From positions 1 through 50,301 of IMG/VR virus record IMGVR_UViG_3300032087_003955: a DNA stretch of 50,301 nucleotides. One strand, given 5' to 3'. Source of the DNA: a virus. The notes under the pieces are model-generated. The model ran no database searches. It was not told the origin of the DNA and saw only the letters and a program-made list of their open reading frames with translations. Shown one piece after another: positions 30,866 to 50,062 of this stretch. Each line of letters opens with the position of its first letter. The first letter of the stretch is position 1. Position numbers and translations under genes: made by a program.

Positions 30866-32587
30866 ATGGCAAAAGGAAATACTGGTAATACTAAAGAGTA
30901 TGTTCAATGCCTAGCATTTGCTCATTTTGCCAATAATAAATATCCAAATAAAAAAGAAGATCAAGAAGAACATAAAAATTCTTTTTATAATCTTTTTGTT
31001 ACTTCTGCAGATCGAAAAAAATATGATATTGAAAAGTTAAATCTCAGAGAATATAAACAATATGTGGGGAAAAAATTTCCTTTCATGAGGTGTTTGAGAG
31101 ATTTTAAAACAAAAGTTGGTGGAAGAGGTAAATCTAAAGGAAATATTACTGCGGATACTACAGTACAAAAAGTATATGATGTTGCATTAGAACTTTATAA
31201 ATCCAAAGTCATTGGTCAAAACTGGGAAAATTATGAATTTCTAGATCAAACTGATACTTTTACTCAAACTGTAAAAGATGCTGCATTAGAAAAAATTAAA
31301 AATGTTTTAGGAATAAAATTTAAACTTGACATGCTTGCAAGTTTTGATATGTTTATTGTTCATAAACAAAAAAAGCAGCAAATATTAGATGAAATAAACA
31401 CTCATATGATAAATGCAGATGAGGCAACTATATTGAGAAACTATTCGTTAAATCAGCACACTTATAGAACTATATTAAATCGACATTTTAAATCGTCTTC
31501 AAATACAAGATCTTTAGTTGCCGTTTCACTTAAATTGCCAGGAACTATTGAACAAAAAAAATATATAAACATAATTGGAACAGAAAATGTAAAGAAAGAA
31601 CTATCTGAATATATTGATCCATATACTAAGTTTTTAACTCTAGCAATATCATCTAAACCAAATGAGTTAAAGTCATTGATAGAGAATTTAATAAAAATAG
31701 AATATGGGCAATTTAGAACTAATTCTAATGTATTAACTTGGGAATTGCCAGTAACTTTTAGGTATAAAGTAGCAGCACAAAAGGTATTTGGTAGAGATAT
31801 CGAACCATTAAGTGATATGAATTATAAAATAGTTTTTCTTGCTCAAGGATATGGTGCTGGATGGAATGGATTTGTGAAGGTTGGAAAACAAGGTCCACCT
31901 TGGACTGGTGGAGGTGCAGCATCAACATTTGAATTTTTCTATGAACAATATCCAGAATACTCTAAGGTTATACAGAAATTAGTTCAATTAAGAGCAAAAG
32001 CTTTTAATTATGTTTTAACTGGTAAAGAAAATGGAAAAATAGATACTTCTACTTTTTCAAATAAGTTGAAATCACTATATCAAGCAGCATTAAGAGAAAT
32101 AACAACTAGAAAAATACTAGTTAATACTGTTGGTGTAAAATATAATAATGTTGAGAAATTTTTTAATCTTTATGATGAGGAAAATAAAAGTAAAGATAGT
32201 ATGACAATGTATCAAGTTGCCGTTATTAATTTAGTTAAGGGAAAAATAAATCCTTCAATTAAAATAACAAACAAATACGCAAGTTTTAATATGAATGTTG
32301 GTAAAAAATCAGAAAGAAAAGCAACATCTTCTGAAACTCAAGAAAGAATAAAAGCACATTATGCACATGCACAACTTGCGTGGTTTACTTTTATTGGTGG
32401 AAAAAATTACCAAACATTCCTTAAACAAAGAATGTTTTTGACCATATATGGAGTTATCAGTAAAAAAGGATATAAGATATTTGATTACAATAAAAACATT
32501 GCCACAGTTAAAAGTGCAATTACTGCATCAATGAAAGGTATGCCTAAAGCAGCATTTGATTCTGCTCCTCACCTGTTACTGTCATGA
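30866..32587 (+). CDS. Unrecognised Lys-rich protein, possibly nuclease-like
   Basis: A 573-aa protein, conspicuously AT-rich and Lys/Asn-rich compared with the fibre genes before it and the helicase after it. I cannot name a family with confidence. One region resembles a PD-(D/E)xK-type core: hydrophobic strand SFDMFIVHK (Asp161), then RSLVAVSLKLP (Lys223), with a Gly-rich stretch later (KQGPPWTGGGAASTFEFF). Some phage nuclease-like proteins pair an acidic ADI-F strand with a SLK strand in this way. It has its own sigma70-type promoter. A role in host DNA attack or defence is possible but unproven. Confidence 0.6.
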   Translation: MAKGNTGNTKEYVQCLAFAHFANNKYPNKKEDQEEHKNSFYNLFVTSADRKKYDIEKLNLREYKQYVGKKFPFMRCLRDFKTKVGGRGKSKGNITADTTVQKVYDVALELYKSKVIGQNWENYEFLDQTDTFTQTVKDAALEKIKNVLGIKFKLDMLASFDMFIVHKQKKQQILDEINTHMINADEATILRNYSLNQHTYRTILNRHFKSSSNTRSLVAVSLKLPGTIEQKKYINIIGTENVKKELSEYIDPYTKFLTLAISSKPNELKSLIENLIKIEYGQFRTNSNVLTWELPVTFRYKVAAQKVFGRDIEPLSDMNYKIVFLAQGYGAGWNGFVKVGKQGPPWTGGGAASTFEFFYEQYPEYSKVIQKLVQLRAKAFNYVLTGKENGKIDTSTFSNKLKSLYQAALREITTRKILVNTVGVKYNNVEKFFNLYDEENKSKDSMTMYQVAVINLVKGKINPSIKITNKYASFNMNVGKKSERKATSSETQERIKAHYAHAQLAWFTFIGGKNYQTFLKQRMFLTIYGVISKKGYKIFDYNKNIATVKSAITASMKGMPKAAFDSAPHLLLS

Positions 32588-32864: not shown

Positions 32865-32894
32865 GCACCTTGACTTCCTGGTCAAGGTGCTTTA
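32865..32894 (+). terminator. Rho-independent terminator
   Basis: Perfect 10-bp stem, GCACCTTGAC paired with GTCAAGGTGC, six-base loop TTCCTG, then TTTA. It closes the 60-aa gene unit. Its stem also contains the -35 box of the next promoter. Confidence 0.75.
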
Positions 32895-34404: not shown

Positions 34405-35082
34405 ATGTCAAACTATTCATTATATTGTGATGTTCCAGAAGAAAGTGATGATTATCTAATTCCATTGTTTTCTACACCTTTGCTGCATTTAAAAGTTTCT
34501 GATTGGGAAGAAAAAAAGAAAGAACTATTAGAAATCTTTGAAAAAAGAAAATCTGATCCTGAAGCATGGCAAGTTGGGGCAAGAAGAGATAGTGCTTTAG
34601 ATGTAGAAACTGATTATCACCATAATTACGATAATAATCTTGATTACAGTGAAGATATTACTGAAATTTTTCAAGATGAACTAGAGATTCTTGCAGATAC
34701 TTTTCAATGTAGTGTAGAAGTTTGCACTACATGGTTTGAAAAGGCAAAAAAAGGTAAAATGCATCAAGTACATAATCATGGTATAAGTGGTTTTAGTGCT
34801 GTATGCTTCATTCAATTCGATCATAAAAAACATACACCAACTGTATTTTTAAATCCTAATCTTGCAGATGTTGAAATTGCTAATGCGCTTCCACCTAGGA
34901 TTAGAGAAGGATCATTGATATTTTTCCCTTCTTATCTTCTTCACTATACTGCTCCAAATGAGAGTGATACTGATAGGATAATTCTTTCATTTAACACAAT
35001 TGTAGAGTATGAGCACTTTACATATGAGGAAGAAAGAAAGATGAATGCTCAGGATGGAGAATATTTTACTGAAGATGTCTAA
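34405..35082 (+). CDS. 2OG-Fe(II) oxygenase-like protein 1
   Basis: A 225-aa protein with the layout of the 2OG-FeII_Oxy_5 type common in cyanophages: His123/His125 in QVHNHGISGF, distal His180 in FFPSYLLHYTAP, and Arg191 in DTDRIILSFN for the 2-oxoglutarate carboxylate. The first metal motif is HxH rather than the usual HxD. Such enzymes use Fe(II), O2 and 2-oxoglutarate to hydroxylate a substrate; the substrate is unknown. It begins the oxygenase cluster and overlaps the next oxygenase by eight bases. Confidence 0.7.
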   Translation: MSNYSLYCDVPEESDDYLIPLFSTPLLHLKVSDWEEKKKELLEIFEKRKSDPEAWQVGARRDSALDVETDYHHNYDNNLDYSEDITEIFQDELEILADTFQCSVEVCTTWFEKAKKGKMHQVHNHGISGFSAVCFIQFDHKKHTPTVFLNPNLADVEIANALPPRIREGSLIFFPSYLLHYTAPNESDTDRIILSFNTIVEYEHFTYEEERKMNAQDGEYFTEDV

Positions 35083-35638
35083 ATCATTTATTCTCCGTAA
35101 TTTTTTGTTTGAAGATAATGTAAAAGATCTTAATCAATGGACTCTTGAGAATTGTCAACAAAAGTTCTTTGAAGATGCTGGGATGGATCCTGATAACCCT
35201 GGCACAAGATTTACAACGAGATTTCCAAATGAATCTGTTGCCCCAAATATAGATTATCCTCTATCTGCTTTTGCTGTTAAGCAAAGAATTATTGATTACT
35301 TTGATCTAAAACACTATAAAAATCCACCATCATATAGTCATGGAATAGTAAATGGTATTGGATATGAAGGTGGTAGAATAGAGCAGCATATTGATCCTAC
35401 ATATTATCCAAATACAAAAACTGTTCACTTTAATGCTATTACGCAGCAAGCAGATAGGGGTGGACATACTATAATTGATGGTGTAGAATATAATGACATT
35501 CAATCAACAGATCTTTTGATTTATCAAGTATCTGAAGTTTACCATGAAGTTACTCCAACACACGGTAAAACTCCAAGAATTTTATGGGTATTTGGATTTT
35601 GTTTAGATGATAAAAAAATAAGGGAAATATTCTTATGA
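35075..35638 (+). CDS. 2OG-Fe(II) oxygenase-like protein 2
   Basis: A 187-aa protein starting at ATG 35075 inside the end of the previous gene; an in-frame ATG at 35045 overlaps further and is less likely. Residues fit the prolyl-hydroxylase-like core: His105-x-Asp107 in EQHIDPTYY, distal His157 in YHEVTP, Arg168 in TPRILWVFGF. All key residues are present, so it may be active. It ends with an ATGA overlap into the next oxygenase. Confidence 0.7.
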   Translation: MSKSFILRNFLFEDNVKDLNQWTLENCQQKFFEDAGMDPDNPGTRFTTRFPNESVAPNIDYPLSAFAVKQRIIDYFDLKHYKNPPSYSHGIVNGIGYEGGRIEQHIDPTYYPNTKTVHFNAITQQADRGGHTIIDGVEYNDIQSTDLLIYQVSEVYHEVTPTHGKTPRILWVFGFCLDDKKIREIFL

Positions 35639-36387
35639 AAGTAAACTCAAAACTTTTTGAAACCAATGATCTGTCAAACATGAACATCATTGAGTTTGTT
35701 GATGGTGATAAAGTATCCAATCTTTTTTGGATGGATAACTTTTATAAAAATCCAGATGATGTTTATGATTATCTTCTATCGATAGAACCTCCATTATGGA
35801 AAGTTGGTCCAGAATGGAATTTGGGCAGAGGAACACTTAACACAAAGTATTTTGAAGATCGTAGACATCAACTAGATGTTGATGAAATTCTCCCTGTAAT
35901 CAATTCTCTATCCAAACTTTGTGGACAGGAAGCATTGGATGAGCAAATTATCACAAATTTCTCTAGATTCAGTAAAATAAAAGAAAATCCATATCATGAT
36001 CATTATTGGTGGCCTCATCATGATGGTGGATATAATGGTATTTGTTATTTCTCAAAACATGATGAGATTGGAACAAATTTGTATAAACCATTGATTACTA
36101 ATGATCCTGAGTTACTTCCATTGGATGAAAATGGTGGTGTAAGAGATGAACATGCTCTTCCATGGACACCTAAAAAATATTGGGAAAAGGTAGTTAGTTT
36201 TAGATCAAAATTCAATCGTTTTGTTATGTTTGAAGGATCATACTATTATCATAGTATGGACTTAACAGGAAAGAATTATTTTGCTAATCATTGGAGTAAT
36301 GCAGAATATAGAATTAACCAAGTATTCTTCTTTGGCGATTTCTTTAAATATCAAGGTTGGTATAGAGATCAATGCAAAGAAACTTGA
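35635..36387 (+). CDS. 2OG-Fe(II) oxygenase-like protein 3
   Basis: A 250-aa protein. Metal and cosubstrate residues are visible as His128-x-Asp130 in WWPHHDGGYNG, distal His206 in GSYYYHSMD and Arg226 in EYRINQVFFFGD. The region before it is Trp/Tyr-rich. It resembles the phage family often annotated as DUF6445, which is predicted to be a 2OG-Fe(II) oxygenase; this name is from memory. Starts by ATGA overlap with the previous gene. Confidence 0.65.
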   Translation: MKVNSKLFETNDLSNMNIIEFVDGDKVSNLFWMDNFYKNPDDVYDYLLSIEPPLWKVGPEWNLGRGTLNTKYFEDRRHQLDVDEILPVINSLSKLCGQEALDEQIITNFSRFSKIKENPYHDHYWWPHHDGGYNGICYFSKHDEIGTNLYKPLITNDPELLPLDENGGVRDEHALPWTPKKYWEKVVSFRSKFNRFVMFEGSYYYHSMDLTGKNYFANHWSNAEYRINQVFFFGDFFKYQGWYRDQCKET

Positions 36388-36399
36388 TAGGAGATAATA

Positions 36400-37062
36400 A
36401 TGACTGAACATAGATTTAGACCAGAAATAAGTCCAAATGATGATGATTTTGAAGAAATTACAATATCAAACATCACCCAGAAAGATTTATTTGTCACACC
36501 ATTTTTTGATTTTGAGTTAGATTTTGATAACAATGAAGTTGTTGAAGAATGTTTAAACTTGAAAGAAAAATATCCTAATGGAGTTAAAAAATCTAATTGG
36601 GGTGGTGGATGGCAAAGTCAGGTATATGAACTTCATAATATAAGGAGAACAACAACACCTGTAATTCAAAATCTGGCAAGAAATGTTATTGATCTAACTA
36701 ACCATATGCTAGAACAATGCAATGCTCAACAGAGAGTTAGTGATAATGATATTGGTTGGTGGATTAACATCAATAAAGGTATGGGATATAATGTTCATCA
36801 TACTCATCCTGGATGCAGTGTAATTGGAATATATTATCCAAAAATACCAAAAAATATGCAAGAGACTGAAGGAATGTTTTCATTGATTAGAACTGATGCA
36901 ATGAATCATAATAGTGCATTTGCTGATATTCCAGATAATTGTGAATATTTTATCAGACCAGAAGAAAAGCATTTGTATCTCATGCCATCAACAGTTGCAC
37001 ATTATGTGACACCACACTTTAGTGATGAAGAAAGAATATCCATCGCATTTAATATTGGATAA
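36400..37062 (+). CDS. 2OG-Fe(II) oxygenase-like protein 4
   Basis: A 220-aa protein, 12 bases after the previous gene with AGGAGA upstream. It shows His134-x-His136 in YNVHHTHPGCSVIG, distal His201 in MPSTVAHYVTPH and Arg212 in EERISIAFNIG. This is the HxH variant, as in protein 1, and the two look like members of one subfamily (2OG-FeII_Oxy_5). A late promoter box overlaps its stop, separating it from the fibre-tip genes. Confidence 0.7.
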   Translation: MTEHRFRPEISPNDDDFEEITISNITQKDLFVTPFFDFELDFDNNEVVEECLNLKEKYPNGVKKSNWGGGWQSQVYELHNIRRTTTPVIQNLARNVIDLTNHMLEQCNAQQRVSDNDIGWWININKGMGYNVHHTHPGCSVIGIYYPKIPKNMQETEGMFSLIRTDAMNHNSAFADIPDNCEYFIRPEEKHLYLMPSTVAHYVTPHFSDEERISIAFNIG

Positions 37063-37065
37063 ATA
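37058..37065 (+). promoter_or_regulatory. Late promoter box (GATAAATA)
   Basis: NATAAATA match overlapping the TAA stop of the fourth oxygenase gene, 34 bases before the first fibre-tip gene. Confidence 0.55.
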
Positions 37066-37099
37066 ATACACGTTATCTGTTGTTAGTTATTGGTATAAT

Positions 37100-37636
37100 A
37101 TGTCTATTTTACAAACGAGTGGTATTCAATTTGGTTCCGATAATACTATTCTAAATTCTAAGTATGGCATTATTCCCCAAAATAGTGTCGCAGTGTTTTA
37201 TCAAGCAGCAGCACCTGGGGGATGGGTTCAAGTAACGACACATAATAATAAAGCACTTAGAGTTGTATCTGGAACTGGTGGAGGATTTGGTTCTGGTGGA
37301 ACTGATGGTCCTGGTGGGCAACCATTTTCTACAATTTTCCCAACATCAACCCGTCCAATTACTGGAACTGTAACTGCTGCTGGTACTGTTGGTGATACAA
37401 CACTTACAATTCAGCAGATTCCTGGACATACACATAATGCAGGTTCTTCAGTTAATGTCAGTCCTGGATCTCCTGGTATTGGTGGTCGTGCTGTAAATGC
37501 TGATGCACCAGCAACATCACCAACTGGTGGAGGTGGAGCTCATACTCACCCATTTAGTGGCACTGCATCACCATATAGTGGAAGTATTGATATGAGAGTT
37601 CAATATATTGATGTTATTCTTTGCCGTTTCCAGTGA
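37100..37636 (+). CDS. Fibre-tip protein with tail-collar/HxH motifs, short paralogue
   Basis: A 178-aa protein of the tail-collar type. It begins MSILQTSGIQFGSDNTILNS, followed by VAVFYQAAAPGGWVQV. Two HxH motifs, PGHTHNAG and AHTHPFSG, are of the kind that bind metal ions along the axis of T4 gp12 and gp37 tips. The end IDMRVQYIDVILCRFQ matches the next gene. In T4-like phages this unit forms the receptor-contacting end of a fibre. Expressed late. Confidence 0.7.
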   Translation: MSILQTSGIQFGSDNTILNSKYGIIPQNSVAVFYQAAAPGGWVQVTTHNNKALRVVSGTGGGFGSGGTDGPGGQPFSTIFPTSTRPITGTVTAAGTVGDTTLTIQQIPGHTHNAGSSVNVSPGSPGIGGRAVNADAPATSPTGGGGAHTHPFSGTASPYSGSIDMRVQYIDVILCRFQ

Positions 37637-37644
37637 GGTTATAA

Positions 37645-38922
37645 ATGTCAATTTTACAAGCAGATGGTATTGAATTTGGTAATGGTACTGTATTAAATAC
37701 ATTTTACGGTATTATTCCACAAAGCACTACAATGGTGTTTTATCAGGCATCAGCACCTACTGGGTGGACACAAGATGCGACTGAAAATAATAAAGGACTA
37801 CGAGTTGTAGATGGTAGTAGTGGATTTCAAGGAGGAAGTTCTGGTGGTTTAATTGCTTTTACAGATTTATTCAATGACAGCACAGGTGCAGAAGCAAATT
37901 GTACTTCAACAATTACTGGTTCTGTAGATGATACAACCTTAACAGAAGCACAAATACCAGGACACACACATAATACTGGAAGCAATCCTAACTCATACAG
38001 AAGTTCGGCATCATCATCACCATTCAGATCTGATAATAGGCAACCAAGAGGTTATGCAATTAGAGGTGAGACTAGAGTTGTCTTTGAGAATAGAGTTATC
38101 GTTAATTTTAGACAACCAATTAACGTAAGACAACCTCGTAACTATAGACAAGAGCAAAGACAGAGAGTTCCATTAAGAAATCGTCAACCAAGAAACTTTA
38201 GGGTTAGATACCCTGCACGTTCTAGAAGACCAGTACCTTTTCGTGCTCCTGTTCCTTTCCGTGTTCCTCTAAGATGGAGGAATCCAATTAACTATCGTCG
38301 TGATGATGGAAGATGGAGAAGACCCATTCAGCAACAATTCCGTTCTTCTTGGAGAAATAATGATAGATTCCCTAGAAGAAGAGGTGGAAGACGTAGAAGG
38401 AATGATAGAGAACCAAGAAGAAGAGATAGAAGGGGTACTAACTGGTGGAACTGGAGACAAAGACGGCAAATTAGAAGACCTAGATCTTATAGACAGAGAA
38501 GATCATTCCGTCAACCAAGAAACTTTAGACAACCTCGTAACTTTAGACAGAGGAGATCATTTAGAAATAGACAACCTAGAACATTTAGAGTGAGGTATGC
38601 GTTCAGACAAAGAAACGCTTTCCGTGTCAATATTCCATTTAGGGTAACAGTTCCACAAAGAAATCCTGCATCTTATAGACAACCAAGAACATATCGTGTT
38701 GTACAAAGATATCCTTTAGTTTCTAACGTTAGGGTATCACAAAGAACACTATCTCCTGGTGGTACTATTAGAGCAAATAATACTCAAGCACCAGCAACAT
38801 CATCAACTGGTGGTGGTCAAGCACATACTCATCCATTTACTGGAAGTGAAGTTAGTTTTGTTGCCTCTCTATCTCCATTGAGAGTACAATACATTGACGT
38901 TATCCTTTGCAGTTTGGATTGA
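37645..38922 (+). CDS. Fibre-tip protein with long Arg-rich insertion
   Basis: A 425-aa paralogue of the previous protein. Residues 1-115 and 382-425 align with it, including PGHTHNTG (His107, His109) and AHTHPFTG (His394, His396) and the same C-terminal YIDVILC. Between the two HxH sites lies a 266-residue insertion (116-381) made of Arg-rich repeats such as RQPRNFRQPRNFRQRRSF and VPFRAPVPFRVP. I count about 79 Arg, about 10 acidic residues and no Lys in it. The insertion occupies the place where gp37/gp12-type tips carry receptor-binding loops, so it is probably the host-contact surface. Confidence 0.75.
   Translation: MSILQADGIEFGNGTVLNTFYGIIPQSTTMVFYQASAPTGWTQDATENNKGLRVVDGSSGFQGGSSGGLIAFTDLFNDSTGAEANCTSTITGSVDDTTLTEAQIPGHTHNTGSNPNSYRSSASSSPFRSDNRQPRGYAIRGETRVVFENRVIVNFRQPINVRQPRNYRQEQRQRVPLRNRQPRNFRVRYPARSRRPVPFRAPVPFRVPLRWRNPINYRRDDGRWRRPIQQQFRSSWRNNDRFPRRRGGRRRRNDREPRRRDRRGTNWWNWRQRRQIRRPRSYRQRRSFRQPRNFRQPRNFRQRRSFRNRQPRTFRVRYAFRQRNAFRVNIPFRVTVPQRNPASYRQPRTYRVVQRYPLVSNVRVSQRTLSPGGTIRANNTQAPATSSTGGGQAHTHPFTGSEVSFVASLSPLRVQYIDVILCSLD
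37990..38787 (+). repeat. Arg-rich degenerate tandem repeat
   Basis: Encodes residues 116-381 of the long fibre-tip protein. Units are variations on R-Q-P-R-(N/T/S)-(F/Y)-R and on (V/A)-P-F-R. At DNA level, copies such as 38511-38546 repeat the pattern caaccaagaaactttagac / caacctcgtaactttagac with synonymous changes. Confidence 0.8.
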
Positions 38923-38931
38923 TCATGCTAT

Positions 38932-38939
38932 AATAAATA
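38932..38939 (+). promoter_or_regulatory. Late promoter box (AATAAATA) overlapped by TATAAT
   Basis: NATAAATA match 10 bases after the fibre-tip stop and 20 before the Cys-motif gene. TATAAT at 38929-38934, with TTGCAG 16 bases upstream (38907-38912), could add a sigma70-type start at nearly the same place. Confidence 0.5.
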
Positions 38940-38958
38940 ATACACTGAATTTCGTTTT

Positions 38959-39345
38959 ATGACTAAGGCAACTGGCAAGTGGTGTCCACTTATTAAAAAA
39001 GATTGTGTTGAGCATAAGTGTTCTTGGTATACACATATTGCTGGACAAGATCCGAATACTGGTAATCAAGTAGATCATTGGTCTTGTGCAATTCAATGGA
39101 TGCCAATGCTGATGATTGAAAACAGTCAGCAGCAACGATCTACAAGTGCTGCTGTTGAATCATTCCGTAATGAAATGGTCAAAGCAAATGAGAGTAATCA
39201 GCAAATGTTAGATGCTGTTGGTAACATGTATCTAGACATGTGTGAAGCACAGGGTGTTAATGTATCAGAATACTTTGAACCCTTGGAAGGTATAGATAAT
39301 GAAGAAGAAAACTTACTACCCGAGTCTGACGAGGAGAAACAATGA
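38959..39345 (+). CDS. Cys-motif protein, 128 aa
   Basis: N-terminal 45 residues hold four conserved-looking cysteines: WCPLIKKDCVEHKCSWY and then DHWSCAIQW, i.e. C-x6-C-x4-C and a fourth about 22 residues on. This could bind zinc or an iron-sulfur cluster. The rest is helical with an acidic C-terminus (NEEENLLPESDEEK). It overlaps the coiled-coil gene as ATGA. Function not recognised. If it carries Fe-S it might connect with the iron-dependent oxygenases nearby, but that is only a guess. Confidence 0.6.
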   Translation: MTKATGKWCPLIKKDCVEHKCSWYTHIAGQDPNTGNQVDHWSCAIQWMPMLMIENSQQQRSTSAAVESFRNEMVKANESNQQMLDAVGNMYLDMCEAQGVNVSEYFEPLEGIDNEEENLLPESDEEKQ

Positions 39346-40688
39346 GAATTTCTATTATTCCTGAAGATAAAAAAATTATTGTTGATAAAAAAACGGTAGA
39401 TCTTGAGGATGATGCACCTTGGGATTTTGATGATGAGCATATTCATGCTATTCAGTGGAAAGATGGTAGAGGTTCTTTAGAATATGAAGATGTTCCTGGT
39501 GAAAGTCCTGTACCAAATAAAATCTTTGGTGAAGATGAATTTGAAACCATTGTTCAACCATATCTCGATTATTACAATACCTTCTTAAACCTTTATGAGC
39601 AGAAAGAGCTTGCTGCTGCTATTGCAGAAGAGGAGAATCTTGCTGCTCAGATTGAAGAACTAAATCTTGATAAACTAGAGAAAGAAGCACAACTTGTCAT
39701 CATTGAAGATCTTCAAAGACAAAATAAAGAACTTCGTCAGGAAAAGGATGTTCTTGCTGATGAAAAGTCTAGATTAGAGCAAGCAGAATTTTTCGATAAA
39801 CAAACTGCTGTTATTCAACTGGAAAGAGAGAAAGCAGCAAGAGAAAGTGAATATAGTGCTCTAGAACAGCAGAAAGCAGATGAATTTTTTCAAAAGAAAT
39901 CTCTAGAACTTGCTAAAAAGTATGATAATCTTCTAGAAGATTTTGAAAAAGAAAAAGAAGCATTTATTGAAGAGAGAAAACAGTATCAAGAACTTCTTGC
40001 ACAGGAACGTGAGAAGATGGAAAGAGAATCAGAACTTCTTGAGAAGCAGATTCTTGAAGATGAGCAAGAAGCAATGCTCAAGAGAGCACAAGAAGATAAA
40101 GTTCGTGAACTTGAAAATGAGCAACTTGAACTTATCCGAGCAGAACTTGAGATGCAAAGAGAAAGTTTAGAAATTCAAACTCTAGAAAATCAAGAGTTTA
40201 TCAATGAATTTAAAGATAAACTTACAGATCATGCTTCAAAACTTGAGATGGGTCAAGAATTTGTAGAGCAAGAGTTGGAAGAAAAACGTCGTTATCTCTT
40301 GAAGACTTCTGAAGAAATTGATCGTAAGATGGAAGAGGAGCAAGCATACGATGAAATGGATCTTGCTCTTGAATTAGAATATGAAAGACTTGAAGAAGAG
40401 TATAGAGAAAAGCAAAAGCAAGAAATTCTTGATTCAAAACTATTTGATCCTGAAGCACTACAGAAAGAAACTCAAGAAATCTTTGAACAAAATATTCAAA
40501 GACAAAAAGTTGAATCTGGTGCAGAATATGATGTTAATGATGTCCTAAATCTCATTGATCAAATTGATCCACAACAACTTTATACTACTCTCACAAATGA
40601 TGAAAGAGAGGATAATGAGTTCCCTGTAGATAAAGCAGTTAAGTGGTTTGCAGAACTTAAGAAAGTTATTGACGAAAACCAATCCTGA
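39342..40688 (+). CDS. Coiled-coil protein with fibre-chaperone-like N-terminus
   Basis: A 448-aa protein. The first 60 residues (MRISIIPEDKKIIVDKKTVD, EHIHAIQWKDGRGSLEYEDV) match a small beta domain found in phage proteins encoded beside fibre genes and thought to assist fibre assembly. Residues about 80-375 are an almost continuous Glu/Lys/Gln/Leu-rich coiled coil, far longer than in usual members. The C-terminus (YDVNDVLNLIDQIDPQQLYT) looks globular. With two fibre-tip genes just upstream, a fibre trimerisation chaperone is the best inference. Confidence 0.55.
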   Translation: MRISIIPEDKKIIVDKKTVDLEDDAPWDFDDEHIHAIQWKDGRGSLEYEDVPGESPVPNKIFGEDEFETIVQPYLDYYNTFLNLYEQKELAAAIAEEENLAAQIEELNLDKLEKEAQLVIIEDLQRQNKELRQEKDVLADEKSRLEQAEFFDKQTAVIQLEREKAARESEYSALEQQKADEFFQKKSLELAKKYDNLLEDFEKEKEAFIEERKQYQELLAQEREKMERESELLEKQILEDEQEAMLKRAQEDKVRELENEQLELIRAELEMQRESLEIQTLENQEFINEFKDKLTDHASKLEMGQEFVEQELEEKRRYLLKTSEEIDRKMEEEQAYDEMDLALELEYERLEEEYREKQKQEILDSKLFDPEALQKETQEIFEQNIQRQKVESGAEYDVNDVLNLIDQIDPQQLYTTLTNDEREDNEFPVDKAVKWFAELKKVIDENQS

Positions 40689-40698
40689 TTAAACAACA

Positions 40699-42105
40699 AT
40701 GAATAGTGATTTGCTCAGGAACAACTATCTGGTTGTTCCTAATTTTATTACTCCAGAACATGCCGAAAAATTAAGAACAGAGTTTCATTTAACTGACTCA
40801 AAGTTTAAGTTTAGCGGAGACCCACAAGCACCAAATTCTGCTGCTGTCTGGAATTATCTTCCTGCATTAGAATTGCTTGCCAATAAAACATCTCATGTTT
40901 CTGAGATTGTTGGTGAGACTGTTCTCCCTACTTACGTTTATTCTAGAATTTATCGTAACGGAAGTGTATTAACAAAGCACACAGATCGTCCTGCATGTGA
41001 AGTTTCTATGACTTTACATTTGGGTGGTGATAAACCTTGGGCAATCTGGATTGAAACGCCAGAAAGAGAAAAAAGATGTGTCTCTTTGAATCCTGGTGAT
41101 GCTATGCTATACTTGGGATGTATTGCTCCACATTGGAGAGATAAATTTGATGGTGAACACTATACTCAATTCTTTTTACATTATGTAAGAAGTCGTGGAT
41201 ATTGTGGTGAAGCATATTTTGATAGAGAACGTGATCTTGATGAAGATTTTGACATTTTAAGAGAGGAGTATGAAGAAATGAAAAACAGATTTACAGGTTC
41301 ATCTAATAATGTAATTCTTCCTAAAAAGTATAGAGAGGAGAAAGAAAATAGATTCAAACGTCGTGAATTAAGATCTAGAGAGAAAGAAAACCTTGAGATC
41401 GTAGAACTTCAAGATGATGATAAAGAATTCGTCGATTTTGATGAAGTTATTGTTGCCAATAAAAAGTATGAAAAGTTTCTAACAAAGAAAGATTCTCCTG
41501 AACTTATTGCAAAACCAGAAAAGAAGGGTGGTTTGTCTCAAAAGACTTTAGAAGATTTTGTTGTGCATCTTGAGGAAGCAATTGATCCTGATTTTTGCGA
41601 TCAAATTCTAGAGCAATATGTGTATACAAATTACTGGGAACCAACATTAACTGGTAATGGTCATGATCCTGGAGCAAGAAAATGTGCATTTATTCCTATT
41701 TCTGATCCAGCAGTTCTTCAAGAAGATAATCAAGAAGAACGTAAAGAAATCGACAATAAGTTATTTGAAATTGTCCAAGATTTGATTAAGCAATATCAGG
41801 ACATGCACCCCGACTTTGATTTGGAAATTCAAGAAGATTCTGGTTATGAACTTCTACGTTACGAGGAAGGTGATTTTTACGTTCAACATACAGATTCATT
41901 CAAAGAACAACCCAGAGCATTGACTATTATTATGTCAATGAATAACGGATTTGAAGGTGGTCAAGTTGCACTATTTGATAGAGAACTTATGTATAGTCTT
42001 GATTGTGGTGATGTTCTTATGTTCCCTTCAAACTTCATGTATCCTCATGAAATTCTTCCAGTTAAATCTGGAGTTAGATTTTCAATCATTACTTGGGTTG
42101 TATGA
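40699..42105 (+). CDS. Two-domain 2OG-Fe(II) oxygenase-like protein
   Basis: A 468-aa protein with two oxygenase units. The N-terminal unit has His94-x-Asp96 in LTKHTDRPACEV and a distal His145 in APHWRDKF. The C-terminal unit is a prolyl-4-hydroxylase-like core with His397-x-Asp399 in YVQHTDSF, FEGGQVALFD, distal His450 in YPHEILPV and Arg460. A charged Lys/Glu/Arg linker (about 195-270) joins them. Two fused units could act on two sites or one could be structural. Its stop overlaps the next oxygenase start (ATGA). Confidence 0.75.
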   Translation: MNSDLLRNNYLVVPNFITPEHAEKLRTEFHLTDSKFKFSGDPQAPNSAAVWNYLPALELLANKTSHVSEIVGETVLPTYVYSRIYRNGSVLTKHTDRPACEVSMTLHLGGDKPWAIWIETPEREKRCVSLNPGDAMLYLGCIAPHWRDKFDGEHYTQFFLHYVRSRGYCGEAYFDRERDLDEDFDILREEYEEMKNRFTGSSNNVILPKKYREEKENRFKRRELRSREKENLEIVELQDDDKEFVDFDEVIVANKKYEKFLTKKDSPELIAKPEKKGGLSQKTLEDFVVHLEEAIDPDFCDQILEQYVYTNYWEPTLTGNGHDPGARKCAFIPISDPAVLQEDNQEERKEIDNKLFEIVQDLIKQYQDMHPDFDLEIQEDSGYELLRYEEGDFYVQHTDSFKEQPRALTIIMSMNNGFEGGQVALFDRELMYSLDCGDVLMFPSNFMYPHEILPVKSGVRFSIITWVV

Positions 42106-42764
42106 ACTTAAATGATAGTGACTTCATTGGGGTTTATGATAATGTATTGTCTCAAAATGTTTGTGAAAAAATTACAAAATATTTTGATAAAACATACATA
42201 GATCCTGATGATGTGCCAGAAGATTCAAAGTTAAGAACATCTAAGGGTTTTAATGAAACTCCAAATGGTGGATTAACTAGGCATGATTATCAAATATTTG
42301 TAAATTCAGATGAACCTGTATTTGAGATCATAAACATGTGCGTCAATAAATGCTGGGAATTGTATAGAAAAAAATACTGGGTTATTGATGCTATTGACAT
42401 GGAGTTTGAGGAAGTTAAACTTCAGAAAACACCACCAAGAGGTGGATTTCATGATTGGCATTGTGAGATAAATGATCTTGCTGTTGTTGACAGATGTATG
42501 GTTTGGATGTTATATTTGAATGACATTCCCGAAGGTGAGGGTGAGACTGAATTTCTATGGCAAGGTCTTAGAGTTCAACCAAAAGCAGGCAGAATGGTAA
42601 TTTGGCCAGCATTTTTTACTCACACTCATAGAGGTAATGCAGTTTATTCAATGAATAAGTATATCGCAACTGGTTGGGGTCACTATTATTGTGATAATAG
42701 CAAAGTAGAAGATTACTATGAATTGGATAAAGATTCAAAAAATTACACCAGAAGATATTACTAA
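42102..42764 (+). CDS. 2OG-Fe(II) oxygenase-like protein 6
   Basis: A 220-aa protein starting at ATG 42102 in the ATGA overlap; an in-frame TTG at 42093 is less likely. The metal motif is His120-x-Glu122 in FHDWHCEIND, an accepted HxE variant. Distal His174 or His176 lies in FFTHTHRGNAVYS, and Lys186 may replace the usual Arg. EGEGETEFLWQ is the typical strand before the distal His. Its stop overlaps the next ATG (TAATG). Confidence 0.7.
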   Translation: MNLNDSDFIGVYDNVLSQNVCEKITKYFDKTYIDPDDVPEDSKLRTSKGFNETPNGGLTRHDYQIFVNSDEPVFEIINMCVNKCWELYRKKYWVIDAIDMEFEEVKLQKTPPRGGFHDWHCEINDLAVVDRCMVWMLYLNDIPEGEGETEFLWQGLRVQPKAGRMVIWPAFFTHTHRGNAVYSMNKYIATGWGHYYCDNSKVEDYYELDKDSKNYTRRYY

Positions 42765-42973
42765 TGGCATTATCTGATCAAGTAAGAGATTCTTTAGACT
42801 CAGCATCACATCATTTGCGAGAAGCACTAGCATTTGCTGCTAGGAATGAAAAACCATTCATTCTTAAAGAAATTGGTAACATGATTCATAGTATTGATGT
42901 AATTCAGGATGCTGATGAGTTATTAGATAATGTTGATGATATTCTAAAACGTTATGATGAAGATAAAGAATGA
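42764..42973 (+). CDS. Small helical protein, 69 aa
   Basis: ATG overlaps the previous stop by one base, and its own end overlaps the next oxygenase gene by about 17 bases. The protein is predicted helical by eye (SLDSASHHLREALAFAARNE; ADELLDNVDDILKRYDEDKE). No motif recognised. Being translationally coupled on both sides, it may be a partner of the flanking oxygenases. Confidence 0.6.
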   Translation: MALSDQVRDSLDSASHHLREALAFAARNEKPFILKEIGNMIHSIDVIQDADELLDNVDDILKRYDEDKE

Positions 42974-43538
42974 CCCTTTTCCTCATATTATTATAGAGGA
43001 TTACTTTACAGATGTAGAATATAAACTAATTTGGAGAGAAATTGATTTTCTTTCAAGTAAATTGAAGACACCTGATGATTTTTCTGCTGCACAAAATGAC
43101 GATGGTGAATATCTAACAGATTCTAGTGGTTTATCACTGGATAGCACATATTTTGATCGTTCAGTGTCTGATATTCTTAGGATATTGGATGAGAAACTAT
43201 TTTCTCAAGAGTTTTATGATTCTATCATTGATGAAAATGAGTATTGGGAATACTTTCTAAGAGCAAATAAAGATTTTACTAAACTTCGTAAGTATACAAG
43301 TGAGCAGCATTATCAACCACACCAAGATATGTGGGTTAATGTATTAGTTTCTACAACATTGCAGAAAGATGATGTTGAAGGTGGTGATTTATTCTTTCCC
43401 AATCATGCTTACATGATTCCTACTAAAGATAACCAAACCATTATCTTCCCTGGTTGGGTGAAACATGGTGTGACTTCTGTGATGAGCAATGATAGGTATG
43501 CCATCACCAAGTTTATCCACTCTGCTGTGCCAGAATGA
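42957..43538 (+). CDS. 2OG-Fe(II) oxygenase-like protein 7
   Basis: A 193-aa protein from ATG 42957 (an adjacent in-frame ATG at 42954 is equally possible). It opens FPHIIIEDYFT, usual for this family, and has His122-x-Asp124 in YQPHQDMWVNVL, GGDLFFPNH, distal His170 in FPGWVKHGVTSV and Arg180 in NDRYAITKFI. All catalytic positions are filled. Its stop lies in the loop of a stem-loop (43526-43549), so this gene closes the oxygenase run. Confidence 0.75.
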   Translation: MKIKNDPFPHIIIEDYFTDVEYKLIWREIDFLSSKLKTPDDFSAAQNDDGEYLTDSSGLSLDSTYFDRSVSDILRILDEKLFSQEFYDSIIDENEYWEYFLRANKDFTKLRKYTSEQHYQPHQDMWVNVLVSTTLQKDDVEGGDLFFPNHAYMIPTKDNQTIIFPGWVKHGVTSVMSNDRYAITKFIHSAVPE

Positions 43539-49477: not shown

Positions 49478-50062
49478 ATGGAATACTACACTTACGCATA
49501 TTTGCGCGAGGATGGATCACCCTACTACATTGGTAAGGGTAAAGGAAATAGAATGTTTGAAAAAAGTGGGAGAGCAGCAGGTCCACCAAAAGATAGAAGT
49601 AGAATAATCAAATTAAAGCAAAACCTCACCGAAGAAGAGGCATTTGCTCACGAAATGTATATGATTGCTGTGTTTGGTAGAAAAGACATAGGAACTGGTA
49701 TTTTACGAAACAAAAGTGATGGTGGTGAAGGAAATAGTGGATATATTATTTCTGATGAAAATAGAGAAAAGGCAAGAAAGAGAATGAAAGAAAATAACAT
49801 TATGAACACTCACAGGAAAAATTATCTTGAAGGTATTAAAAGAAGGGCAGAAAGTGAAAAGTGGTTAGAGAGTAGAAAGAAACTGAGAAAAACATATAAA
49901 ATCACTTTGAAAACTGGTGAAATAATTGTAACTAATAATCTCCCACAAGTTTGTAAAGAACGAAACTATAATGCTGCTAAAATACGCGGTATTATTGCAG
50001 GAGATAGAAAAACACATAAAGATATTGTGGCAGTTGAGAAAGTGGCACAGGGAGCATCCTAG
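49478..50062 (+). CDS. GIY-YIG homing-type endonuclease
   Basis: A 194-aa protein. The GIY-YIG core is at 3-25 (YYTYAYLRED, PYYIGKGKGNR, with YIG at 17-19 and catalytic Arg25) and catalytic Glu59 lies in FAHEMYMIAVFG. LRNKSDGGEGNSG is typical of free-standing phage members. The C-terminus (TGEIIVTNNLPQVCKERNYN, IRGIIAG) resembles NUMOD-type DNA-binding repeats. No intron or interrupted gene is visible, so it is free-standing, like T4 Seg enzymes, and is a mobile gene that spreads by cutting related phage DNA. Confidence 0.85.
   Translation: MEYYTYAYLREDGSPYYIGKGKGNRMFEKSGRAAGPPKDRSRIIKLKQNLTEEEAFAHEMYMIAVFGRKDIGTGILRNKSDGGEGNSGYIISDENREKARKRMKENNIMNTHRKNYLEGIKRRAESEKWLESRKKLRKTYKITLKTGEIIVTNNLPQVCKERNYNAAKIRGIIAGDRKTHKDIVAVEKVAQGAS

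What the first reader, a model, noticed from the sequence alone, without database searches (positions are those of the whole stretch)
37100..42105. Possible virion-modification unit: Arg/Pro-rich tip, chaperone, hydroxylases
The Arg/Pro-rich repeat tip, a coiled-coil protein with a fibre-chaperone-like start, and a two-domain prolyl-hydroxylase-like protein lie next to each other, with more oxygenases on both sides. Arg, Pro and Asn residues are known substrates of protein-acting 2OG oxygenases. The insertion is built of Pro, Arg, Asn and aromatic residues. I infer a system that modifies the receptor-binding repeats after synthesis.
Basis: inference. Interest (0 to 1): 0.7.

Follow-up and report, generated by a model that had tools for sequence, protein, structure and literature searches.

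The report
Phage tail-tip cassette with hydroxylase-like enzymes
A marine cyanobacterial virus carries a receptor tip with an unusual lysine-free, arginine/proline six-residue repeat, and in related viruses this repeat is inherited together with a row of hydroxylase-like enzymes and an enlarged fibre chaperone, which suggests, but does not prove, that the virus chemically modifies its own tail tip.

Summary
[quoted passage not shown] Gene 37645 is a second copy of tip gene 37100, with 284 residues inserted between its two HxH motifs. The insertion repeats every six residues, lacks Lys and Cys, carries about +70 charge, and is under purifying selection.

The 40699 two-domain oxygenase is not tied to the repeats: its family also follows tips without the insertion (32 of 51 loci). 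The three oxygenases upstream (35045, 35635, 36400) are tied: they precede insertion-bearing tips in 14, 15 and 15 of 15 loci, and simple tips in 0 of 40. The coiled-coil protein is longest beside insertion tips, and a homologue links its start to tail-fibre-assembly proteins.

Insertion tips form one clade on the 40699-type tree, so this is one shared origin, not repeated evidence. The upstream enzymes persist, however, in deep members that have lost most outer neighbours.

Best reading: a tail-tip cassette with dedicated 2OG oxygenases, probably hydroxylating the hexad insertion. Modification itself is untested; confidence about 0.4.

The parts
34405..35082 (+). 2OG oxygenase, PF13759 type (upstream enzyme 1)
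   Evidence: PF13759 3.5e-13, phrog_81; conserved HxH...H...R (H123/H125/H180/R191); upstream of 12 of 15 insertion tips, 1 of 40 simple tips
35045..35638 (+). 2OG oxygenase with no family of its own (upstream enzyme 2; true start probably near 35075, as the S-SCSM1 homologue begins there)
   Evidence: AF2 model pLDDT 93.5; prolyl-hydroxylase-type fold; H115/D117/H167/R178 invariant in 19 of 19; upstream of 14 of 15 insertion tips, 0 of 40 simple tips
35635..36387 (+). 2OG oxygenase (upstream enzyme 3; PHROG label 'minor coat protein' looks wrong)
   Evidence: phrog_1644; H128/D130/H206/R226 conserved; annotated as 2OG oxygenase in MK867354.2; upstream of 15 of 15 insertion tips, 0 of 40 simple tips
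36400..37062 (+). 2OG oxygenase, PF13759 type (upstream enzyme 4, adjacent to the tips)
   Evidence: PF13759 1.1e-15; conserved H134/H136/H201/R212; upstream of 15 of 15 insertion tips, 0 of 40 simple tips
37100..37636 (+). Tail tip 1, no insertion; two HxH motifs
   Evidence: HxH pairs invariant in 9 of 9; profile hits solved tail fibres 9qgo (4e-9) and 9nxk (6.9e-6); S-SCSM1 homologue noted as virion protein
37645..38922 (+). Tail tip 2, with the hexad insertion (protein residues about 110-393) between its HxH motifs
   Evidence: alignment with tip 1; periodicity; length and composition across relatives; dN/dS
38959..39345 (+). Small conserved protein between tip and chaperone, function unknown
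   Evidence: present at 115 non-redundant tip loci (it was the anchor of the search); no family match above noise
39342..40688 (+). Probable tail-fibre-assembly chaperone with a long coiled coil
   Evidence: IHAIQW N-terminal domain linked through L201 to phrog_4912; 432-493 aa beside insertion tips, 79-351 aa beside 73 of 75 simple tips
40699..42105 (+). Two-domain 2OG oxygenase (N half carries the PHROG label 'ferrochelatase'; C half prolyl-4-hydroxylase-like)
   Evidence: PF13640 2e-13 on the C half; P4H hits in PDB such as 5hv0 4.8e-6; both ligand sets invariant in 10 of 10; also beside simple tips
42093..42764 (+). 2OG oxygenase, PF13640 type, downstream
   Evidence: PF13640 8e-9; kept in 15 of 16 deep insertion contigs
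42954..43538 (+). 2OG oxygenase, PF13640 type, downstream; probably not part of the core cassette
   Evidence: PF13640 1.1e-7; kept in only 1 of 8 deep insertion contigs

Best explanation
This is a tail-tip cassette. It makes two HxH-type tail-fibre tips, one with a long hexad-repeat insertion that probably extends the needle between its HxH motifs into a strongly positive, receptor-contacting shaft (inferred). The 39342 protein is a tail-fibre-assembly chaperone whose coiled coil has lengthened with the insertion (length difference shown; chaperone role inferred through a homologue). The upstream 2OG oxygenases 35045, 35635 and 36400 are dedicated partners of the insertion (linkage shown) and most likely hydroxylate its side chains, Pro first, Arg or Asn as alternatives, before or during trimer assembly (inferred, untested). 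The 40699 enzyme belongs to an older block (tip, small protein, chaperone, oxygenase) that also occurs with plain tips, so its substrate is probably not the insertion.
For: Strict linkage: 35635 and 36400 precede 15 of 15 insertion tips and 35045 precedes 14 of 15, against 0 of 40 simple tips; any 2OG oxygenase upstream 15 of 15 against 3 of 40. Reverse test: 32 of 41 loci with a 35045 relative and 34 of 42 with a 35635 relative show the insertion tip; all the rest but two each end too soon. Retention in deep members while outer genes are lost. All enzymes keep their metal ligands. The 35045 fold matches peptidyl prolyl hydroxylases, including PBCV-1 vCPH (Z 15.5) and the P. putida enzyme solved with EF-Tu. 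Chaperone link and length. Insertion period 6, Lys-poor, strongly positive in all 29 sequences.
Against: Insertion tips are one clade on the two-domain oxygenase tree, so the linkage is one origin. The 35045 fold ties with small-molecule enzymes WelO5 and SnoN. Relatives of 35635 and 36400 occur in 83 and 141 phage records, while the repeat tip itself hit only 4 records. The S-SCSM1 record does not note the insertion tip as a virion protein, though it would give 7 usable tryptic peptides against 5 for tip 1. Genes with no obvious part in it, 42764 and 44719, are retained as well. One insertion locus, L031, lacks recognisable 34405 and 35045 in its 4.4 kb upstream. No modification has been seen by anyone.
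Confidence: 0.4

Rival explanations
1. Hitchhiking. The oxygenases are ordinary cyanophage auxiliary genes that act on metabolites, 2OG levels or nucleic acids. They sit beside the tips because one successful ancestor had them there and gene order has been kept.
For: One clade on the two-domain oxygenase tree; such oxygenases are common in cyanophages, 24 in S-SCSM1 (PMC9602691, passages); nitrogen/2OG signalling and DNA repair are the published ideas (PMC3037559, passages); 42764 and 44719 are retained too.
Against: In deep members the upstream enzymes stay in fixed order beside the tips while fibre 27691 (2 of 9), 34176 (2 of 18) and 42954 (1 of 8) are lost; sister loci with plain tips lack the enzymes (0 of 40).
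Confidence: 0.35
2. The oxygenases modify another structural protein, such as the neighbouring long fibre 27691 or the chaperone, rather than the insertion.
For: They lie between the long-fibre genes and the tips; the coiled-coil protein also changes with the insertion.
Against: Fibre 27691 is recognisable in only 2 of 9 deep members that still keep the enzymes; the coiled coil is divergent (22-46% identity in deep members) with no repeat noted.
Confidence: 0.12
3. The enzymes make a small molecule or sugar that is attached to the virion or the host surface, and the link with the tip is indirect.
For: The 35045 fold also fits small-molecule enzymes; in S-SCSM2R the two-domain oxygenase lies beside glycosyltransferases.
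Against: No transferase or ligase gene was recognised among the window genes 34405-43538 that were scanned; the S-SCSM2R tips have no insertion and lie elsewhere in its genome.
Confidence: 0.1

Closest known systems
T4 gp37/gp12-type HxH receptor-binding tips (marine versions discussed in PMC11705849, passages)
   Same: Paired HxH motifs, position at the end of a fibre module, sequence match to solved tail fibres 9qgo and 9nxk
   Different: A roughly 284-residue (or 353-381-residue) Lys-poor hexad insertion between the HxH motifs; metal binding untested
Peptidyl prolyl hydroxylases (P. putida P4H on EF-Tu, PHD2, PBCV-1 viral collagen prolyl hydroxylase)
   Same: Fold and conserved HxD...H...R of 35045; sequence match of the C half of 40699
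   Different: Only 8-16% identity for 35045; substrate unknown; equally close to a halogenase and an epimerase
Cyanophage 2OG oxygenase sets (S-SCSM1, 24 genes)
   Same: Same gene families; the whole region is syntenic with S-SCSM1
   Different: Here three families are shown to be tied to one tip insertion; the S-SCSM1 passages read give no such link
Phage tail-fibre-assembly proteins (phrog_4912, PF16778)
   Same: Homologue L201 shares the IHAIQW domain and matches both; gene follows the tips
   Different: The window protein matches neither itself and carries a much longer coiled coil

Membership tests
HxH-type phage tail-fibre tip | Two HxH motifs in the C-terminal domain | tested here: met
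   Invariant in 9 of 9 tips and, for the insertion tip, 14 of 14 (H107/H109, H394/H396)
HxH-type phage tail-fibre tip | Sequence homology to solved tail fibres | tested here: met
   9qgo 4e-9 and 9nxk 6.9e-6 with the tip profile A4
HxH-type phage tail-fibre tip | Trimer with metal ions on the axis | not testable with these tools
   Monomer model of tip 2 failed, pLDDT 38
HxH-type phage tail-fibre tip | Present in the virion | tested here: inconclusive
   S-SCSM1 record notes tip 1 but not the insertion tip as virion protein
Fe(II)/2OG oxygenase superfamily (35045, 35635, 36400, 34405, 40699) | Conserved metal ligands and distal basic residue | tested here: met
   Conserved in all family alignments made here; in 34405 and 36400 the first pair reads HxH rather than HxD
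Fe(II)/2OG oxygenase superfamily (35045) | Double-stranded beta-helix fold | tested here: met
   Model pLDDT 93.5; 844 of 999 chains at Z 8 or more, top rows all 2OG enzymes
Peptidyl prolyl hydroxylase (35045) | Hydroxylates proline in a protein | not testable with these tools
   Fold ties with non-protein enzymes; no assay
Phage tail assembly chaperone PF16778 (39342) | PF16778 domain | tested here: not met
   No match of the whole protein at E 0.1 nor of its N-terminal 98 aa at E 10; so it is said to work like a fibre chaperone, not to be a PF16778 member
Tail-fibre-assembly proteins phrog_4912 (39342) | Homology over the N-terminal domain | tested here: inconclusive
   Only through the intermediate L201, matched over residues 4-134; direct search of the window protein found nothing

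The most novel reading that the evidence does not exclude
The cassette is a dedicated virion post-translational modification system: several phage 2OG oxygenases hydroxylate a purpose-built, Lys-poor hexad needle in the receptor tip while an enlarged coiled-coil chaperone holds it. Insertion, chaperone length and enzymes arose together and are inherited as one unit.
Probability: 0.35. Interest if true: 0.82.

Novelty: new variant of a known kind. Interest (0 to 1): 0.6.

Why it matters
[quoted passage not shown] A strict partnership with one receptor-tip insertion gives three of these families a concrete candidate substrate in a cultured phage. Hydroxylation of a phage adhesion protein would add an oxygen- and iron-dependent layer to host recognition.

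Tried and rejected
Rejected: that 40699 is the repeat-specific enzyme. Its family occurs beside simple tips (32 of 51 loci; any single domain 42 of 51), in S-SCSM2R and in S-T4, a phage that gave no tip match.

Rejected: that the insertion is a frameshift or junk. dN/dS is 0.19-0.39 and four Arg codons are used; the length is 283-284 aa in most relatives of the close group.

Not usable: the structure of the insertion tip (pLDDT 38). The model drew two mirror-placed long strands, 139-180 and 317-358, which would fit an out-and-back needle, but at that confidence it is only a hint.

Led nowhere: the late-promoter pattern HATAAATA is not enriched (10 found, 14.0 expected) and sigma-70-like sites are at chance (42 found, 44.7 expected). 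A scan for 35045 relatives in the bacterial and archaeal genome collection confirmed none. PDB sequence searches with the 35045 and 35635 profiles gave nothing significant; the coiled-coil profile hit only weak matches, mostly coiled coils.

Hexad pattern scan of viral contigs: 26 stretches matched. In one search, 10 contain an in-frame QPxx[YF]RQPxx[YF]R: 8 in this tip family (4 of them on contigs already held), one low-complexity ORF at a contig end (L218) and one unrelated ORF (L226); 16 have none in frame. The pattern fixes some codon letters, so repeats with other codons are missed.

Limits of the counts: one search kept only loci with a 38959-type gene next to a tip, and merged identical ones; 3 of 115 had a cut or unclear tip. 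The 23 coiled-coil lengths for insertion tips include L240, whose ORF is cut by the contig end, so 22 are complete; a few simple-tip lengths may be cut too. One search counts overlapping and near-identical loci. One search used 37 contigs typed from the tool listings, one of which (3300008113_007676) had no tip 1 and was not counted. On the tree of the 38959-type protein (122 columns, poorly resolved) the insertion label needs 3 changes, not 1. No p-values are given because the loci share descent.

Literature: searches listed no paper that I recognised as reporting hydroxylation of a phage tail tip or this repeat; the library is open-licence PMC only and listings were mostly judged by title and abstract start. 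Seen as passages: PMC9602691 (also its section on virion-associated proteins), PMC3037559, PMC9599517, PMC11561400, PMC12774648, PMC11705849. All other papers were seen only in listings.
Full report
WHAT THE WINDOW IS. The window is a 50,301-base virus record of IMG/VR type. Its nearest named relative is Synechococcus phage S-SCSM1 (Kyanoviridae, Zhoulongquanvirus), with the genes from 34405 to 43538 in the same order.

THE OBSERVATION. Tip 37645 aligns with tip 37100 at both ends and differs by an insertion between the two HxH motifs. The insertion has 284 residues, 79 of them Arg, 28 Pro, 26 Asn and 24 Gln, and a period of six in Arg, aromatics and Pro. In its near-identical twin L005 it has no Lys or Cys and a net charge of +69; across 29 insertion sequences Lys is 0-3% and the net charge +36 to +83. 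Substitutions are mostly synonymous. This is a real, constrained protein domain, not chance.

THE ENZYMES. 34405 and 36400 match PF13759; 42093, 42954, 46461 and the C half of 40699 match PF13640. 35045 reaches no family cut-off, but its model (pLDDT 93.5) has the 2OG oxygenase fold; the best matches are prolyl hydroxylases, tied with the halogenase WelO5 and the epimerase SnoN. 35635, labelled 'minor coat protein' by PHROG, has conserved HxD...H...R and is annotated as a 2OG oxygenase in MK867354.2. The N half of 40699 falls in PHROGs named 'ferrochelatase', yet it carries HxD...H in 10 of 10 sequences, and the S-SCSM1 authors assign that gene two oxygenase domains, pfam13640 and pfam05721 (PMC9602691, passages).

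THE CHAPERONE. The 39342 protein itself matches no informative family. Its N-terminal domain recurs after tips in many phages, in proteins as short as 79 aa. One of these, in L201, matches the tail-fibre-assembly family phrog_4912 over residues 4-134 and carries PF16778. These proteins are 432-493 aa beside insertion tips (23 listed, one of them cut) and 79-351 aa beside 73 of 75 simple tips, the two exceptions being 573 aa. Within insertion loci, insertion length and protein length correlate (r 0.81, n 23, the cut L240 included); among simple tips the HxH spacing does not (r -0.09, n 75).

CO-OCCURRENCE. Relatives of tip, chaperone and oxygenase from IMG/VR and phage records were reduced to 115 non-redundant tip loci: 23 insertion, 89 simple, 3 unclear. 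With at least 4 kb downstream, the two-domain oxygenase follows 17 of 17 insertion tips and 32 of 51 simple tips. With at least 5.5 kb upstream, 35635 and 36400 precede 15 of 15 insertion tips, 35045 precedes 14 and 34405 precedes 12; simple tips have the first three in 0 of 40 and 34405 in 1 of 40. A permissive search for any of eight 2OG profiles upstream gave 15 of 15 against 3 of 40; a bare sequence motif also flagged unassigned ORFs at 14 of 40 simple loci, so remote oxygenases there are not excluded. In reverse, 32 of 41 loci with a 35045 relative show the insertion tip, 7 end too soon and 2 distant ones (36% identity) lack it; for 35635 the figures are 34, 6 and 2 of 42 (my tally of its listing, near-identical loci kept). 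Among 50,697 phage records only the two S-SCSM1 records match 35045.

HOW MUCH THIS PROVES. On the tree of the two-domain oxygenase the insertion tips are one clade (21 of 64 rows, support 100/99). On the short 38959-type protein the label needs three changes on a poorly resolved tree. Insertion, long coiled coil and upstream enzymes therefore map to about the same branch, one event. What adds weight is retention. In contigs whose tip 1 is under 80% identical to the window's, 36400 is kept in 22 of 22, 35635 in 21 of 21, 35045 in 19 of 21 and 34405 in 18 of 20, while fibre 27691 is kept in 2 of 9, 34176 in 2 of 18, helicase 32925 in 8 of 17 and 42954 in 1 of 8. Retention is not limited to the cassette: 42764 (15 of 15) and 44719 (12 of 12) persist too.

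MECHANISM. Shown: the tip, its insertion, the conserved enzyme ligands, the linkage and the coiled-coil length difference. Inferred: the insertion lengthens the HxH needle, the coiled-coil protein holds it during folding, and the upstream enzymes hydroxylate it. Pro content is the steadiest of the four residues compared (mean 0.111, CV 0.15) while Arg ranges from 0.11 to 0.30, which makes Pro my first choice of target, but this is weak. The S-SCSM1 record notes tip 1 but not the insertion tip as a virion protein; I take these notes to reflect the published mass spectrometry (45 proteins), whose figure and tables I could not see. Trypsin alone does not explain the absence (7 usable peptides against 5). 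Low abundance, modification or true absence would all fit.

AGAINST KNOWN SYSTEMS. HxH tips, 2OG oxygenases and fibre chaperones are all known kinds. In the searches named under Tried and rejected I found no report of a phage tail tip hydroxylated by the phage's own oxygenases. Published ideas for cyanophage oxygenases are 2OG/nitrogen signalling and DNA repair (PMC3037559, passages) and host reprogramming (PMC9602691, passages). The Phold paper reports phage proteins resembling human prolyl hydroxylase EGLN3 to be widespread in phages of marine bacteria (PMC12774648, passages). I rate this a new variant of a known kind, interest 0.6, with the full modification reading at 0.35.

Noticed in passing
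window 40699-41235 (N half of the two-domain protein): PHROGs 3531 and 2954, labelled 'ferrochelatase', match a domain with conserved HxD...H that looks like a 2OG oxygenase. Papers that read phrog_2954 as ferrochelatase co-occurring with 2OG oxygenases (PMC9599517, PMC11561400; passages) may be counting two oxygenases.
   Followed up: partly
window 37060-37071 and 38934-38945: The 12-mer TAAATAATACAC occurs exactly twice in the window, directly before tip 1 and directly before the 38959 gene; it resembles a T4-type late promoter (recalled). A late-promoter-like site precedes the 38959-type gene in 12 of 20 insertion loci examined and 6 of 89 simple loci.
   Followed up: partly
L013 1433-1894, L293 7057-7512, L031 2160-2516: Deep members carry extra genes between the oxygenases, among them a cysteine-rich protein with a CxxCxxCC start; resemblance to YkgJ/FliB-type proteins is recalled, not tested.
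   Followed up: no
window 30866-32587: A 573-aa protein without a clear family match sits where S-SCSM1 has the phycobilisome degradation gene nblA: a variable spot between fibre and helicase.
   Followed up: no
L069 3097-3672 and L083 8557-9132, with their neighbours: Two loci with simple tips have a 573-aa coiled-coil protein, the exceptions to the length rule.
   Followed up: no
L278 8001-8588 (and L277): A distant 35045 relative (36%) lies with other 2OG oxygenases near tail-fibre-like genes but with no tip of this family in the stretch held.
   Followed up: partly
window 49478-50062: This ORF begins with a sequence that looks like a GIY-YIG endonuclease (read by eye; motif recalled).
   Followed up: no
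window 32865-32890: Strong terminator-like hairpin of 11 pairs followed by T-rich sequence, directly upstream of the helicase gene.
   Followed up: no
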